Shown here one piece after another: positions 46,375 to 54,571 of a DNA stretch of 64,000 nt. Under the pieces are notes generated by a model. It was not told the DNA's origin and made no database searches. It saw only the letters and a program-made list of their open reading frames with translations. The position numbers were made by a program, and so were the translations under genes. Each line of letters opens with the position of its first letter. Positions within the stretch are counted from its first letter, which is position 1. Origin of the DNA: Phycisphaerales bacterium (lineage in GTDB: Bacteria; Planctomycetota; Phycisphaerae; UBA1845). The stretch covers positions 124,001 through 188,000 of the forward strand of contig JADZBE010000022.1 in the NCBI GenBank assembly GCA_020852275.1, read 5' to 3'.

Positions 46375-46632
46375 TTCAGAGTTGGCAGGCTCTCCGAGGC
46401 ACGGATTCAGGACGTCCCGCGATCCCTGCGCCGGGATGGCGCTGTCCCCCGCGGTCAGATGGCGACCCACCTGGATGATTCCGCCGCCCGCGCGGCTCAG
46501 CCCGGTCTGCGGGAATAACATTGCGCTTGTCACCGCGTCTCTTGATCGGGCATCTGAAGTGGCGGAACAAGGGGAGGGGTTGTGCAGCGGCGACGCGGAA
46601 AGCCGGAAGAAGATCGCAAGTTGGGGGCGCAC

Positions 46633-49623
46633 ATGAACGCGGTTGCATCAACGAGTGCTCGCGGACGAAGTCCGCGGCGAGTCTTCGGGCGCCAAGCGTC
46701 CGCATTCGGACTTCTGGTCCTGCTGGTGTTGAGTGCAGGGGCATCGACTGGCGCCCCGGCGCCGCCGGCGTCGCGTTCCGCTTCCGGCGACCTTCAGTTG
46801 CGACTGGCCCGATCGAGTGATGGGCGAACCTTCACGGATGAGGGGGTCTTGTTTCTTGACCAGGCATCCGCCCCGGACCTTGTGCGCCTGCGCGACGGGC
46901 GGATCATGGCGATGTTCGACGTGCACTCGCAGGACCGATCCTCCATCTGGGTGACGTTCTCACGCGACGAGGGACGCTCGTGGGATGCGCCCCATCCGGC
47001 GCGGATTCAGTCGACGGCCGGCTCGCTGGAGCTTCCGCGTCACGCGGACGCCGTCGTCTCGCCGGGCGGCGCGATCAAGATCTTCTTCACGACCGGACCG
47101 GTCCACCGCGACACCCAGCCGTCCGGCGAGTCCGCGGAGGCCCCGATCCAGAACCGCTCCCACGAGGCCGGCGTTTCCGATTCTGAAGGCGGGGCACAGC
47201 CCGCGCCCGCGGAAACCGACGGTGGACCCGCGCCGGGGCAGACCGAAGGCGGCGACAAACCCGCGCCGGCCGGCGGCACGGGTGTTCAACCGGTGTCCGG
47301 CGCCGCCGGAGCCGCGCAGGTGATCCGCGGGGCCGTCTCGCGCGACGGGATTCACTTCGTGCTCGACCCGCAGGTGGAGATGAAGATCGCCGCGCCGCGG
47401 GGCGAGATGCATGTAATGACGGCCCTGTTCCGGGACCGGGTCTTTGCTTACGTCGATGCGCCGGCGTCCACGTCGAGTCCGTCGGACGCGAAGTCCCCCG
47501 CGCTATTGGGCTTTCTGTCGCGCGATGGACGGCGGTTTGCACGTTTCAGCCCGAAGCGGCCCGATGACGTTCACCTTGTGGGCGACCTGCTCGCGCGCGG
47601 AGAGACGCTGACGGGCTGCTTCTGCGATGCGGGGCGAATGCGCCTGTTCGAATCCAACGACGCGCGGACGTTTGCGGAAACTTCGTGCAAGGGTCCGCCG
47701 GGCGCGACGGACGCGGCGTTGACGGTGCTCAAGGGCGCGGGGCTGCTGATGCTCTACGCCGCGCCGCGCGAAGGAGCGCGAGCTTCCGTTGTGGACGGCC
47801 TGCTGTCGGTCTCGCAGGAGGAGCGTCGCCGGGCGTGCGCCGCGCACGAACTCGCGGAAGACGGATCGGACGCCCGCGCCGCGCGCCAGTCCGCCGGCGA
47901 GCCAGTCGGCGCGGACACCATTTCGCCGCACGAGTTCGTGCTCGTCGCCTCCGCGCCGGTCGAAGGGCGAAGCGACGGCGCATCCCGCTTGCCACGCCAA
48001 ACCTCGACGATCGCGGGGGGTTCGACCGCCGGGCCCGGTGAACCGACCGGCGGGGATATCACTTCCCAGAGCGCATCCGCCTCGGTCGCCGGCGCGCCGG
48101 GTCGCGCCGCGACGGGACGCCCGGGGGATTCGGGAATCGCCGACCCGGCCTCCTTGGGTTCGACACGACCCGAAGCCGCTCCCTCGGAAGCCGCAGTCAA
48201 GAACGCCGGCGACCAAGACGCCCCAGCCTTGTTGGAAGCTTCGTCGCCATGGCCCGATCCGTATTCGACTTTTGCGCCGACCCCCACGTTCAGGGAATGG
48301 GTGGACTACGCGACATGGTATCGAACGATCGGCCGAGGCGCCACCGCGGATGACGCCAACATCGCCTACATGCAGGTCATGCCCGCCGCCAACGATCCGC
48401 CCGGAAGCAAGCCGGACTGGCCGGAGCTGGTGAACATGTTCTCCGACGGAACAACCTTCGCTCACCCCGCGCCGTGGGCGCCCGAGGATCATCCGGATTG
48501 GGAGGCGTCGTACCAGCAGACGCATTGGCTGGCGGACTGGTTCCGGCAGGCCACACTGCACACGGGCTACGCCGGCCCGGACCTGCCCCCGCCGGACGAC
48601 GCGACGACGCATCCGGAGGAGGAGGCGAGGGAGCAATCGCTGCTGATCAACATCCTCCTGCCGGGACTGTCGTCGCATCGGGCGATGGCCAAGAAGCTCA
48701 TTTCCGACAGTTGGCGCGCGGAAGGCGGTCGCGTGGATCCGGCGAGAATGACGCAGGCGTGGGAAACCGTGCTGCGCGGGGCCGGGCACATGCAGATGGG
48801 CTCGACGCTGATCGAGGAGCTTGTCGGCGTGGCGGAGCAATCGCTGGTGCAGGAGAACGCGCGCTGGGCGCTGGACCAAGGTGTATTCCAGACGGAAGAG
48901 GAGATCGAAGGTGCGCTGAACACGCTGGAATCGTTTGATCGCTGCGACCGCGACCCGGTGCAGAGCATCCGCGGCGAACATGCGATGGCCATGGATTCGA
49001 TTCAGTACATGTTCTGGCCCGGCGAACAGAACGGCGAGCCAAAGCCGATTCCTGATCGGATTGAGAAGTTCAGCTCGCTGATCGGTGAGGGATCGGAGGA
49101 GCCGGGCAAGTCCATCTCCGAAATGACGGCGCCGCAGGTGTACGAGACGATCGACGGGTTCGACGCGCACTACCGCACGCTCGCGGACCAGATGCGCGTG
49201 GGGTACCCGCTGGTGCGCGCCGCTGACCTGGACGCGATGCAGGAGTCGTTTGCGGCGGGGAATCCGATGGCCGACATGCTGCTGCCCTCCCTGAGCCGGT
49301 ACTACAAGCTGCGCGCGCGGTCGGAAGCGTCGCGCCGCGCCACGCAGTTGTCCTACGCAGCGCACCTCTACAAGGCGCGCGAGGGGCGCTGGCCCGCCTC
49401 GCTCGACGAGCTTCCCGAGCCGCATCGAACTCGTGTGCGAACGGACCCGTTTACAGGATCGGACTTCGGTTACCAGCTCACGCCGGATGGGCCGCGCGTA
49501 TACTCGATGTCCGAAAATGGTCTGGACGACGGCGGCATGCACGCGCATCGCTGGGACGATGGCGTGGAAGAGGGCGCATCCGACGATTACGTCTTCTGGC
49601 CCCCGCAGGTCCGGCCTCAATGA
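46633..49623 (+). CDS. Large exported protein with sialidase-like N-terminal domain
   Basis: The 996-residue protein has an export segment (FGLLVLLVLSAGASTGA). A sialidase/BNR-like domain follows (about 50-390), with SSDGRTFTDEGVLF and VTFSRDEGRSWDAPH (the S-x-D-x-G-x-x-W Asp-box). Residues 160-230 and 410-550 are low-complexity Pro/Ala/Gly linkers. The last 450 residues are helical. The C-terminal 80 (AAHLYKAREGRWPASLDELP ... DPFTGSDFGYQLTPDGPRVYS) resemble the tail region of planctomycete pseudopilin-like proteins. Catalytic residues of sialidases are not evident. The ATG at 46633 is chosen at the start of the basic n-region. Confidence 0.8.
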   Translation: MNAVASTSARGRSPRRVFGRQASAFGLLVLLVLSAGASTGAPAPPASRSASGDLQLRLARSSDGRTFTDEGVLFLDQASAPDLVRLRDGRIMAMFDVHSQDRSSIWVTFSRDEGRSWDAPHPARIQSTAGSLELPRHADAVVSPGGAIKIFFTTGPVHRDTQPSGESAEAPIQNRSHEAGVSDSEGGAQPAPAETDGGPAPGQTEGGDKPAPAGGTGVQPVSGAAGAAQVIRGAVSRDGIHFVLDPQVEMKIAAPRGEMHVMTALFRDRVFAYVDAPASTSSPSDAKSPALLGFLSRDGRRFARFSPKRPDDVHLVGDLLARGETLTGCFCDAGRMRLFESNDARTFAETSCKGPPGATDAALTVLKGAGLLMLYAAPREGARASVVDGLLSVSQEERRRACAAHELAEDGSDARAARQSAGEPVGADTISPHEFVLVASAPVEGRSDGASRLPRQTSTIAGGSTAGPGEPTGGDITSQSASASVAGAPGRAATGRPGDSGIADPASLGSTRPEAAPSEAAVKNAGDQDAPALLEASSPWPDPYSTFAPTPTFREWVDYATWYRTIGRGATADDANIAYMQVMPAANDPPGSKPDWPELVNMFSDGTTFAHPAPWAPEDHPDWEASYQQTHWLADWFRQATLHTGYAGPDLPPPDDATTHPEEEAREQSLLINILLPGLSSHRAMAKKLISDSWRAEGGRVDPARMTQAWETVLRGAGHMQMGSTLIEELVGVAEQSLVQENARWALDQGVFQTEEEIEGALNTLESFDRCDRDPVQSIRGEHAMAMDSIQYMFWPGEQNGEPKPIPDRIEKFSSLIGEGSEEPGKSISEMTAPQVYETIDGFDAHYRTLADQMRVGYPLVRAADLDAMQESFAAGNPMADMLLPSLSRYYKLRARSEASRRATQLSYAAHLYKAREGRWPASLDELPEPHRTRVRTDPFTGSDFGYQLTPDGPRVYSMSENGLDDGGMHAHRWDDGVEEGASDDYVFWPPQVRPQ

Positions 49624-49744: not shown

Positions 49745-49774
49745 TTGACGAAAGCAATCCAGCCGACGTATACT
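49745..49774 (+). promoter_or_regulatory. Strong sigma70-like promoter of the 49.8-kb RNA locus
   Basis: TTGACG (49745-49750) and TATACT (49769-49774) with an 18-bp spacer, preceded by a run of seven T. The predicted start is near 49781. Confidence 0.75.
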
Positions 49775-49977
49775 CATGTGCGCAGGGCACCGGTTCGGAG
49801 ATGGCGTCGAAATTGGGCGGCGCGCAGACCGGATCAGTCCTTGACGAGCGGCGGGGCAGCTAGCGCCCCCCGCGCGATGAGCCTGTGGCCGACGGGTTGC
49901 AGGACGGGTAAGGCCGGCGGACGAGAGACGACCATTGATCGTCCCCCGGGTGGGCCCGTTTTGAAGGGAGGTGATCC

Positions 49978-50007
49978 ATGGTCGGATTGATAGGTTTGCT
50001 GCTTTAG
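49978..50007 (+). CDS. Putative nine-residue leader peptide MVGLIGLLL
   Basis: The ORF is ATG plus eight codons and TAG. It is preceded by GGAGGTGATCC (49967-49977), an exact 11-nt complement of the conserved 16S rRNA 3' end, with ideal 6-nt spacing from GGAGG. It uses codons rare in a GC-rich genome (TTG, ATA, TTG, CTT), and six of nine residues are Val, Ile or Leu. Its stop codon is in the loop of the first hairpin. Translation is inferred, not shown. Confidence 0.5.
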   Translation: MVGLIGLLL

Positions 50008-50045
50008 GCAGCGGACGTAGCTGCTTATGGCAGCACCAAGCATCC

Positions 50046-50086
50046 GGCCCGGTCCGGAGAACCTCCGAGACCGGGCCACTTTTTTT
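50046..50086 (+). terminator. Rho-independent terminator of the RNA locus
   Basis: GGCCCGGTC (50046-50054) pairs with GACCGGGCC (50069-50077). The inner stem is CGGAG / CTCCG with an AAC loop, and a run of seven T is at 50080-50086. Confidence 0.88.
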
Positions 50087-52057: not shown

Positions 52058-54175
52058 GTGAGTAAGCGATTGCAACGACAGGACCGGGCCGCTCGCGATC
52101 GCCGTGCGGCGGGCGCGGGTGGCAGCGCGGGCGCGCCCTCCGGAGGGGGTGGCGGCGACGACGCGCACAGAGCCGCGGGGGCCGGCGCGTTGTCCAAGGG
52201 CGCATCGAGAAAGCGCCTCTTCGTCCGCGCGGGCGGCGCGCTGGTCGCGGCGGCGCTCCTCGTGACGGCGGGGTTCGTGTTTCTGGGGAAGCGCCCCGTG
52301 CCGCGCGAGCAGCTCAATGTGCTGCTCATCTCGCTCGACACGATGCGAGCGGATCACCTCGGCTGTTACGGACATCCGCTCGCGCGCACGCCGAACATCG
52401 ACGCGCTGGCGGCCGGCGGGACGCTGTTTGCGCAGTGCGTCACCTCCGCGCCGACGACCTTTCCCGCGCACGCCAGTCTGCTGACGGGCACGTACCCGTT
52501 CGTTCACGGCGCGCGAGTCAACGCGCAATTCGAGCTGGCGGCGGAAAACGTCACGCTGGCGGAGCTGCTGAAAGGGGCGGGATTCGTCACGGGGGCGGAA
52601 GTGTCCGCGATGGTGCTCAACCGCGAGTACGGGCTGCGCCAGGGCTTCGACACCTACGTCGATCCGCGGGAGGTGCGCTATCGCAAGGCGAACCCGACGG
52701 ATCAGCCGGTCAACGAGCGCGTCGCCCAGGACGTGTGCGACGGGGCGATTCAATTCCTGCGGGGGCACGCGAGCGAGCGGTTCTTCCTGTTCGTCCACCT
52801 GTACGACGCGCATCTGCCGTACCAGGCGCCGCAGCCCTTCAAGTCGCAATACAAGGACGGTTACCTCGGCGAGATCGCGTACGTGGACCAGCAGCTTGGA
52901 CGGCTCTTCCGCGAGCTGGACGCGCTGAAGCTGACGGGGCGCACGCTCGTCGTGCTGACCGGGGACCACGGCGAAGGGCGCGGCGAGCACGGCGAGGAGG
53001 AGCACGGGCTGCTGGTGTACGACGCGACGCTCGCTGTGCCGCTGATCCTGCGGCTTCCCGGCTGGATCCCCCAGGGTCTGCGCATCGCCCACCAGGTCCG
53101 GCACATCGACGTGCCCTCCACCGTGCTGGATCTCGTGCAGGTGTCCGGTCCGCCCGCCATGCAGGGCGAGAGCCTGATGCCGCTGCTACAGGGGGAGCGG
53201 GGCCGGACATCGCGCGCCGCGTATTCTGAAACGCTGTCGCCGCTGTTCGATTACGTGTACGCGCCGCTGCGAAGCCTGCGCGAGGAGGGGTGGAAGTACG
53301 TGCTGGGTCCCAAGCCGGAGCTGTACCACGTCGCGGCGGACCCGAAGGAGTCGCGGAACCTCATCGACGCGGAACCGCAGCGCGCGCAGCGCATGCGCGC
53401 TGAGCTGGCGCAACTGATCGCCGCGGCGCCGCGCGTGACGGACCCGGCCGCGGCGCGGCGCGCCGTGACCGCCGAGGAGCGGTCGTCGCTGCAGGCGCTG
53501 GGGTACCTTGGCAGCGCCGGCGAGGACGAGATCGGCAGCGCCGCCGCCTCGAATGACCTTGAGCGGTTCCCGCCCACCGGTCCTAATCCCGTGGACCACG
53601 CGGAGGAGGTGCAAACGCTGAGCGCGTGCATGGCGATGGTCACCGCGGGGCGCTTCGAGGAAGCGTCCGCGAGACTGCGGCCACTGCTCGCCTCACAGCC
53701 CGCGGCGTCGCGCGGGCAGTTCAACGCCAACCGGCTCCTCGCCAACGCGCTCAACGGTCTCGGGCGGCTCGATGAAGCGGTGGAACACTACCGCAAGGCG
53801 CTGGCGGAGAGACCGACGGACTTCATCACGCTGACGGACCTGGGCGGGGCGCTGATGCGCCTGGGCAAGCTCGATGACGCGGTGGCGGTGTACGAGTTGG
53901 CGCTGAAGAGTTCGGGCGAGATGCCGTTCGTGCACATGCAGCTCGCGGCGGCGCTGACCGCGAAGGGCGACTACCCGGCGGCCATCGCGCATTGCGAGGC
54001 GGCGCTGAAGACCGACCCGAAGCTCGCCAACGCCTACGCGGCGTTGGCGAACATCTATGCGAAGTCCGATCGCAAGGCGGAAGCCGTCGAGGCAATCCGC
54101 AAGGCGCTGGCGATCAACCCCGCCAGCGCGGCGTTCCGCCGAATGCTGCAGGACCTGACGGGCGATGCGCCGTAG
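52058..54175 (+). CDS. Sulfatase/alkaline-phosphatase-superfamily protein with TPR repeats
   Basis: The 705-residue protein has one membrane helix at about 55-76 after a basic N-terminus. A sulfatase-like domain follows (about 85-420): ISLDTMRADHLGCYG with metal-binding Asp94, and LTGDHGEG. The usual Cys-x-Pro-x-Arg is replaced by Thr134-Phe-Pro-Ala-His, so Thr may be the nucleophile, as in phosphoethanolamine-transferase relatives. A formylglycine sulfatase is unlikely. TPR repeats occupy about 520-700 (LDEAVEHYRKALAERP, LDDAVAVYELALKSSG). The GTG at 52058 follows AAGGA at good spacing. Confidence 0.88.
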   Translation: MSKRLQRQDRAARDRRAAGAGGSAGAPSGGGGGDDAHRAAGAGALSKGASRKRLFVRAGGALVAAALLVTAGFVFLGKRPVPREQLNVLLISLDTMRADHLGCYGHPLARTPNIDALAAGGTLFAQCVTSAPTTFPAHASLLTGTYPFVHGARVNAQFELAAENVTLAELLKGAGFVTGAEVSAMVLNREYGLRQGFDTYVDPREVRYRKANPTDQPVNERVAQDVCDGAIQFLRGHASERFFLFVHLYDAHLPYQAPQPFKSQYKDGYLGEIAYVDQQLGRLFRELDALKLTGRTLVVLTGDHGEGRGEHGEEEHGLLVYDATLAVPLILRLPGWIPQGLRIAHQVRHIDVPSTVLDLVQVSGPPAMQGESLMPLLQGERGRTSRAAYSETLSPLFDYVYAPLRSLREEGWKYVLGPKPELYHVAADPKESRNLIDAEPQRAQRMRAELAQLIAAAPRVTDPAAARRAVTAEERSSLQALGYLGSAGEDEIGSAAASNDLERFPPTGPNPVDHAEEVQTLSACMAMVTAGRFEEASARLRPLLASQPAASRGQFNANRLLANALNGLGRLDEAVEHYRKALAERPTDFITLTDLGGALMRLGKLDDAVAVYELALKSSGEMPFVHMQLAAALTAKGDYPAAIAHCEAALKTDPKLANAYAALANIYAKSDRKAEAVEAIRKALAINPASAAFRRMLQDLTGDAP

Positions 54176-54289
54176 CGGATCGCGCGCAGCGAAGTCGAAG
54201 GTTGCGCCAAGCACCCCCGTCGCCGGCATTCGCGCAGACAGGACGAGCAGGTCGTCCAGGTGTGGGACGGCTGTATGGAGGCCTGCACA

Positions 54290-54571
54290 GGTTGGAAACC
54301 TGTGCTACACCCACCGGTTGGAAACCGGTGCCACAGCGACCGGTTGGAAACCGGTGCCACAGCGACCGGTTGGAAACCGGCGCCACAGACACCGATTTGG
54401 TAACCTGTACCACAGCCGCCGGTTGGAAACCGGTGCCACAGACACCGATTTGGTAATTTGTACCACAGCCGCCGGTTGGAAGCCGGTGCCACAGCCGCCG
54501 GTTGGAAACCGGTGCCACAGCCGCCGGTTGGAAACCGGTGCCACAGCCGCCGGTTGGAAACCGGTGCCACA
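54290..54571. repeat. 26-bp tandem palindromic repeat array, 11 units
   Basis: Units of 26 bp (two are 27) are centred on GGTTGGAAACCGGTGCCAC. Starts are at 54290, 54316, 54342, 54368, 54394, 54421, 54447, 54474, 54500, 54526 and 54552. Most units can form an ACCGGTT-GGA-AACCGGT hairpin. The first changes both arms (ACAGG / CCTGT). Two units (54394, 54447) carry GATTTGG instead. Confidence 0.95.

What the first reader, a model, noticed from the sequence alone, without database searches (positions are those of the whole stretch)
49745..50086. A promoter-to-terminator RNA locus with a perfect-SD mini-ORF and a mutually exclusive terminator fold
Seen: TTGACG-18-TATACT, about 306 nt, then a 9-bp GC stem with a 5-bp inner stem and seven T. 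Between them, the 5' segment 49786-49800 can pair (about 14 bp, two bulges) with the terminator's 3' arm. Near the 3' end is ATG plus eight codons (MVGLIGLLL), led by an 11-nt exact complement of the 16S tail at ideal spacing. Two hairpins with the same GCTGC/GCAGC arms follow, so they can swap partners. The ORF is Leu/Ile/Val-rich and uses rare codons. Inference: an attenuator-like leader or a ribosome-interacting stable RNA. The nearest downstream gene is a lipoprotein, not an amino-acid operon, which is unlike classical leaders.
Basis: partly seen in the sequence, partly recalled or inferred. Interest (0 to 1): 0.88.

Follow-up and report, generated by a model that had tools for sequence, protein, structure and literature searches.

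The report
Ribosome-capturing RNA of planctomycete bacteria
This locus makes a previously uncatalogued stand-alone RNA, found across much of the bacterial phylum Planctomycetota, that carries a near-perfect match to the tail of the ribosome's 16S RNA followed by a tiny reading frame whose start and stop are kept although its peptide is not, which suggests that binding and translation by a ribosome is itself the RNA's job.

Summary
It is a single-copy, stand-alone RNA gene with its own sigma-70-type promoter and intrinsic terminator. Relatives occur in 90 of 114 genomes of the window's order and, with a stringent cut-off, in 54 of 392 Planctomycetota genomes against 0 of 390 Pseudomonadota controls. 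No Rfam 15 family matches. Conserved features are (i) a hairpin with an invariant GACG loop and fully covarying stem, found again in distant classes; (ii) a 'hyper-SD' matching on average 13.9 of 16 bases of the complement of the 16S 3' tail, about -26 kcal/mol; (iii) a mini-ORF of 6-17 codons in 144 of 144 homologs, closed in frame 0 in 64/64 diverged representatives against 13/128 in the other frames, although the peptide is not conserved; (iv) a folded module around the stop codon. Neighbouring genes are not conserved, so the cis-attenuator reading fails; the proposed 5'/terminator pairing is not conserved. Best reading: a trans-acting RNA whose conserved act is capture and short translation by a ribosome. 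What it does with that is inferred.

The parts
49745..49774 (+). sigma-70-type promoter TTGACG-18-TATACT
   Evidence: in 66 of 89 order homologs a promoter scoring >=9/12 lies at the same distance from the SD, against 1% of shuffles
49780..50086 (+). the RNA (5' end inferred from the -10 box, 3' end from the terminator), about 306 nt
   Evidence: fold z -5.2; homologs in 90 of 114 genomes of the order
49882..49903 (+). P4 hairpin CCUGUGGCC-GACG-GGUUGCAGG: stem covaries, GACG loop invariant
   Evidence: 9 pairs, every one with double changes, in 41 sequences; GACG hairpin in 30 of 64 phylum-wide representatives against 0.7 expected
49963..49977 (+). hyper-Shine-Dalgarno GAAGGGAGGTGATCC, complement of the 16S 3' tail
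49978..50007 (+). mini-ORF MVGLIGLLL*, stop TAG inside hairpin H1
   Evidence: start and in-frame stop kept in all 144 homologs examined
49998..50012 (+). hairpin H1 GCUGC-uuuag-GCAGC holding the stop codon; can also pair with H2 as one long hairpin
   Evidence: 3' module z mean -2.9 over 144 homologs
50013..50019 (+). conserved linker, RACGKGS-like in other lineages (GGACGTA here)
50020..50034 (+). hairpin H2 GCUGC-uuaug-GCAGC
50046..50086 (+). intrinsic terminator: 9-bp GC stem, inner 5-bp stem, seven T
   Evidence: terminator-like site in 97 of 137 homologs against 7% of shuffles

Best explanation
It is a stand-alone, trans-acting structured RNA of Planctomycetota. Shown by comparison: its own promoter and terminator, one copy per genome, a conserved GACG-loop hairpin, a near-complete complement of the 16S 3' tail, and a mini-ORF kept as start plus in-frame stop but not as a peptide. 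Inferred: a 30S subunit docks through an unusually long SD-aSD helix, the ribosome translates 6-17 codons and stops inside the folded 3' module, unfolding it. The RNA's state or stability therefore reports, or consumes, ribosomes with a free 16S tail. The peptide is a by-product, and the output goes in trans through the upstream structured domain or through ribosome sequestration itself.
For: Near-universal in the order; specific against a Pseudomonadota control at E<=1e-5; no conserved neighbours. SD:16S-tail duplex -26 kcal/mol on average, against -7 to -16.5 for 27 window ORFs even when the best of 8 starts is taken. Core GGAGGTG is invariant in 64/64 representatives, and 13.9 of 16 positions match the 16S complement. 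Frame 0 closes at codons 6-17 in 64/64, the other frames in 13/128. The AGGUGG motif is read in different frames in different lineages (Arg-Trp or Arg-Gly-Gly), so the nucleotides, not the peptide, are kept. Most stops are UAG/UAA (132 of 144), while UGA ends 14 of 27 window genes. Precedent: extended SDs give unusually stable, tRNA-independent ribosome complexes and sense ribosomes with a free tail in Flavobacterium (PMC9976891).
Against: No expression data. Predicted SD accessibility in the folded RNA is only moderate (median 0.36 unpaired). Mutually exclusive states of H1/H2 are inferred: the arms hardly vary within the order, so covariation cannot test them there. No target or output is known. 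R3 matches with E above about 1e-4 are not specific.
Confidence: 0.5

Rival explanations
1. Ribosome parking or protection RNA: it simply occupies the 16S tail of idle 30S/70S particles (hibernation, tail protection or rRNA 3'-end maturation); the mini-ORF only positions the ribosome.
For: Complementarity covers nearly the whole single-stranded 16S tail, beyond what initiation needs; strong SD complexes are unusually stable (PMC9976891).
Against: Does not explain why an in-frame stop at 6-17 codons is kept in all 144 homologs.
Confidence: 0.22
2. Dual-function sRNA encoding a functional micropeptide (regulator, toxin or signal).
For: Start, length and stop are conserved; peptides often hold Cys and basic residues; about 10% of sRNAs code for peptides (PMC5521070).
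Against: Peptides range from MVGLIGLLL to VKGDKR to VNTEDCRKRGGLR; the conserved AGGUGG is read in different frames; lengths vary from 6 to 17.
Confidence: 0.15
3. Short-peptide or codon trap: a stalling or drop-off mini-gene (hyper-SD, AUA codon, Pro/Leu before UAG) that consumes specific tRNAs or release factor 1, like phage bar mini-genes (known from memory).
For: AUA conserved in much of the window's family; CTGCCGTAG ending common; stops biased to UAG/UAA.
Against: The AUA codon is absent in many other families and classes.
Confidence: 0.08
4. Cis-acting attenuator leader for the downstream gene.
For: Mini-ORF followed by alternative hairpins and a terminator resembles a leader.
Against: No conserved downstream gene and often an opposite-strand neighbour; the antiterminator-like 5' pairing is not conserved.
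Confidence: 0.03

Closest known systems
CC2171 sRNA (Rfam RF01867) and its uncatalogued alphaproteobacterial relatives
   Same: Stand-alone transcript, GAAAGGAGGUGAUCC hyper-SD directly before a short ORF, terminator
   Different: Short 5' leader, no GACG hairpin seen, ORF 18-31 codons in the loci inspected; the window scores 14.7 bits against a gathering score of 75. Probably convergent on the 16S tail
rpsU (bS21) mRNA of Flavobacterium, extended SD autoregulation (PMC9976891)
   Same: Exceptionally long SD that selects ribosomes with a free 16S tail
   Different: mRNA of a ribosomal protein; here there is no protein product beyond a peptide of at most 17 aa
tmRNA (RF00023)
   Same: Widespread structured RNA with a short internal ORF whose stop lies in a hairpin
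   Different: No tRNA-like domain; the genome has its own ordinary tmRNA
Amino-acid attenuator leaders
   Same: Leader-like peptide ORF, alternative hairpins, terminator
   Different: No conserved downstream gene, no conserved regulatory codons
Dual-function sRNAs (PMC5521070)
   Same: sRNA with a translated short ORF
   Different: Here the start and stop, not the peptide, are conserved

Membership tests
CC2171 (RF01867) | covariance model at or above gathering score 75 | tested here: not met
   14.7 bits, E 0.5
tmRNA (RF00023) | tRNA-like domain / model match | tested here: not met
   no match in the window; a separate tmRNA in the genome scores 156.8 bits
6S RNA (RF00013) | model match at this locus | tested here: not met
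   no match at the locus; none found in the genome either
cis attenuator leader | conserved co-directional downstream gene | tested here: not met
cis attenuator leader | conserved alternative pairing that disrupts the terminator | tested here: not met
cis attenuator leader | conserved regulatory codons in the ORF | tested here: not met
   peptides differ between lineages
dual-function (peptide-coding) sRNA | conserved ORF start and in-frame stop | tested here: met
   144 of 144; 64/64 against 13/128 in other frames
dual-function (peptide-coding) sRNA | conserved peptide sequence | tested here: not met
   (by inspection; no dN/dS computed)
extended-SD ribosome sensor (rpsU-like) | SD pairing far beyond ordinary genes | tested here: met
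extended-SD ribosome sensor (rpsU-like) | encodes a ribosomal protein that closes a feedback loop | tested here: not met
   ORF is 6-17 codons
ribosome-bound RNA (any kind) | physical association with 30S/70S | not testable with these tools
   needs gradients or toeprinting

The most novel reading that the evidence does not exclude
A phylum-level class of RNAs whose conserved activity is being translated: ribosomes with a free 16S tail are captured by a full-tail SD, run a meaningless 6-17-codon ORF and switch the RNA's 3' structure at the stop codon, giving a direct read-out of ribosome state to a trans-acting RNA domain. Alphaproteobacteria may have evolved an analogue independently (CC2171-like RNAs).
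Probability: 0.4. Interest if true: 0.95.

Novelty: categorically new. Interest (0 to 1): 0.86.

Why it matters
A structured RNA spread over much of a phylum and apparently absent from Rfam is rare. One in which a start and a stop codon are kept while the peptide drifts points to translation itself as the signal, which apart from tmRNA has little precedent for a stand-alone RNA. It would open a direct route to how these bacteria sense or store ribosomes, and it is testable in cultured planctomycetes.

Tried and rejected
(1) Known RNA families: cmscan at gathering and at E<=10 gave nothing credible. (2) tmRNA variant: rejected, a normal tmRNA exists. (3) Cis attenuator: rejected. (5) 16S antisense artefact: the hits lie in separate loci and the sequence after the SD differs from 16S; the true 16S antisense match in the genome is a different place (L316). 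Short R3 matches covering only the SD (positions 3-21) look like 16S antisense and were not counted. (6) R3 hits at E<=0.05 were first taken as phylum-wide presence, but the control showed 111/390 Pseudomonadota at that cut-off, so only E<=1e-5 is used. Part of those control hits are CC2171-like RNAs. (7) False model hits without the hyper-SD or inside genes (L056, L057, L059, L180, L181, L193) were left out by eye. (8) Literature: no paper found on such an RNA in Planctomycetes or on CC2171's function; only an open-access library was searched.

Full report
THE OBSERVATION. The elements described are all present at the stated coordinates. The promoter TTGACG-18-TATACT is the only such site in 8 kb. 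The RNA folds 5.2 standard deviations better than dinucleotide shuffles, none of 100 reaching it. The genome's own 16S rRNA ends ...GGCTGGATCACCTCCTTTCT, so GGAGGTGATCC at 49967-49977 is an exact complement of its tail. Five such 11-mers occur in the 5-Mb genome, one of them the 16S gene itself.

CONSERVATION. A nucleotide search of 60 relatives found homologs in all three other genomes of the genus and in further genera. A covariance model of the 3' core (R1) found it in 90 of 114 genomes of the order and 56 of 65 of good quality, once per genome apart from weak hits on the opposite strand of the same hairpin. A longer model (R2) reached many further families in the class and phylum. A sequence model trained across classes (R3) gave 54 of 392 Planctomycetota genomes at E<=1e-5, in about 20 families. 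The same model gave 0 of 390 at that cut-off in Pseudomonadota; at E<=0.05 it is not specific (210 of 392 against 111 of 390). The stringent figures are therefore lower bounds for the phylum, and true coverage is unknown. Part of the R3 hits come from genomes that also supplied its training sequences. Contig titles place the window's order near Phycisphaerae/Phycisphaerales: contigs of identical length to G054, G058 and G063 contigs are named JAUIEC010000003.1, JAKPHF010000078.1 and JAGQOO010000011.1. A Blastopirellula MAG also carries the RNA (L217).

GENE STRUCTURE. In the order 66 of 89 homologs have a promoter scoring at least 9/12 at the expected distance, against 1% of shuffles. 97 of 137 homologs have a terminator-like site, against 7%. 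Among 21 loci with up to 6 kb on each side no neighbour family recurs beyond scattered pairs or triples, and roughly half of the downstream genes are on the opposite strand. The RNA is therefore a gene of its own, not a leader.

STRUCTURE. In 41 aligned sequences the upstream hairpin (window 49882-49903) has nine pairs, each with double compensatory changes, around an invariant GACG loop. Beyond the order, stems of unrelated sequence close the same loop: 30 of 64 diverged representatives have an uninterrupted GACG hairpin of at least 5 bp against 0.7 expected, and the next tetraloop reaches 6. The 3' module from codon 2 to 58 nt past the stop has a mean fold z-score of -2.9 over 144 homologs, with more pairs spanning the stop codon than in shuffles (14.8 against 10.4). 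In several other classes hairpins of unrelated sequence hold the stop codon in or near the loop. H1 and H2 share arms and could exchange partners; in the order these arms hardly vary, so this exchange is inference.

RIBOSOME SIGNALS. Representatives match 13.9 of 16 positions of the 16S-tail complement, with GGAGGTG invariant. The duplex averages -26 kcal/mol (window -29.4), while 27 long ORFs of the window reach -7.3 to -16.5 even when the best of their first eight starts is taken. A start codon lies mostly 11-12 nt after the first G of GGAGG. In all 144 homologs examined the frame closes after 6-17 codons. In 64 representatives below 60% identity frame 0 closes at codons 6-17 in 64, the other two frames in 13 of 128. 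The choice of homologs required the SD and a start codon but not the stop. The peptide is not conserved: MVGLIGLLL, VKGDKR, VTIGEQTRWLR, VNTEDCRKRGGLR, VESDCSSQQRGGTA. The nucleotide motif AGGUGG near the end of the ORF is read as Arg-Trp in some lineages and Arg-Gly-Gly in others. Stops are UAG 97, UAA 35, UGA 12, against UGA 14 of 27 for window genes; shared ancestry and hairpin composition could explain part of that bias.

MECHANISM. Shown by comparison: an RNA gene; selection for near-complete 16S-tail pairing; selection for a start and an early in-frame stop; no selection visible on the peptide. Inferred: ribosomes dock, translate and terminate within the 3' module; this act reports or consumes ribosomes with a free tail; the output is in trans. 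Precedent for the first step is the Flavobacterium rpsU mRNA, where an extended SD selects ribosomes with a liberated tail and forms stable complexes even without initiator tRNA (PMC9976891). Rivals are a parking or tail-protecting RNA, a micropeptide gene, a codon or release-factor trap, and a leader (the last largely refuted).

COMPARISON. No Rfam family matches. CC2171 (RF01867) aligns mainly through the shared SD, far below threshold. The scan also showed CC2171-like stand-alone RNAs in Alphaproteobacteria with GAAAGGAGGTGATCC, ORFs of 18-31 codons in the loci inspected, and terminators; the Rfam model at its threshold found none in the seven loci tested. Since the shared string is dictated by 16S, convergence is the simplest view. 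I rate the family as categorically new because no known kind that I could find combines a full-tail SD, a conserved act of translation and a drifting peptide in a trans RNA. A cautious reader could call it a new variant of ORF-bearing sRNAs.

LIMITS. No expression data; mostly MAG-based genomes; homolog lists were partly curated by eye; searches were capped; the literature library is open-access only.

Noticed in passing
L195, L204, L207, L210, L243, L367-L374 (Alphaproteobacteria and other Pseudomonadota control hits): Stand-alone RNAs resembling CC2171 with the string GAAAGGAGGTGATCC, a GTG/ATG/TTG start 12 nt on, an ORF of 18-31 codons with drifting sequence and a terminator; Rfam's RF01867 at its gathering score did not find them in seven loci tested.
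   Followed up: partly
window 54286-54571: Tandem array of about 11 copies of a 26-bp unit CACCGGTTGGAAACCGGTGCCACAGC, partly palindromic.
   Followed up: no
window 52058-54175: Sulfatase domain fused to TPR repeats in one 705-aa ORF.
   Followed up: no
window 46582-49623: 1013-aa ORF upstream of the RNA with only a sub-threshold BNR-repeat match.
   Followed up: no
G000 whole genome: No 6S RNA match by RF00013 at E<=1, although that model rings in only 6 of 14 control genomes.
   Followed up: no
L347-L352, L359-L363: In one planctomycete family with many complete genomes the ORF end reads CGAGGTGG and CCACC often follows downstream, so the last codons appear to form the outer stem around the stop codon.
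   Followed up: partly
window 49828-49842: The 5' part holds CCGGATCAGTCCTT, resembling the 16S tail, and the predicted minimum-energy fold pairs it with the SD region; conservation was not tested.
   Followed up: no
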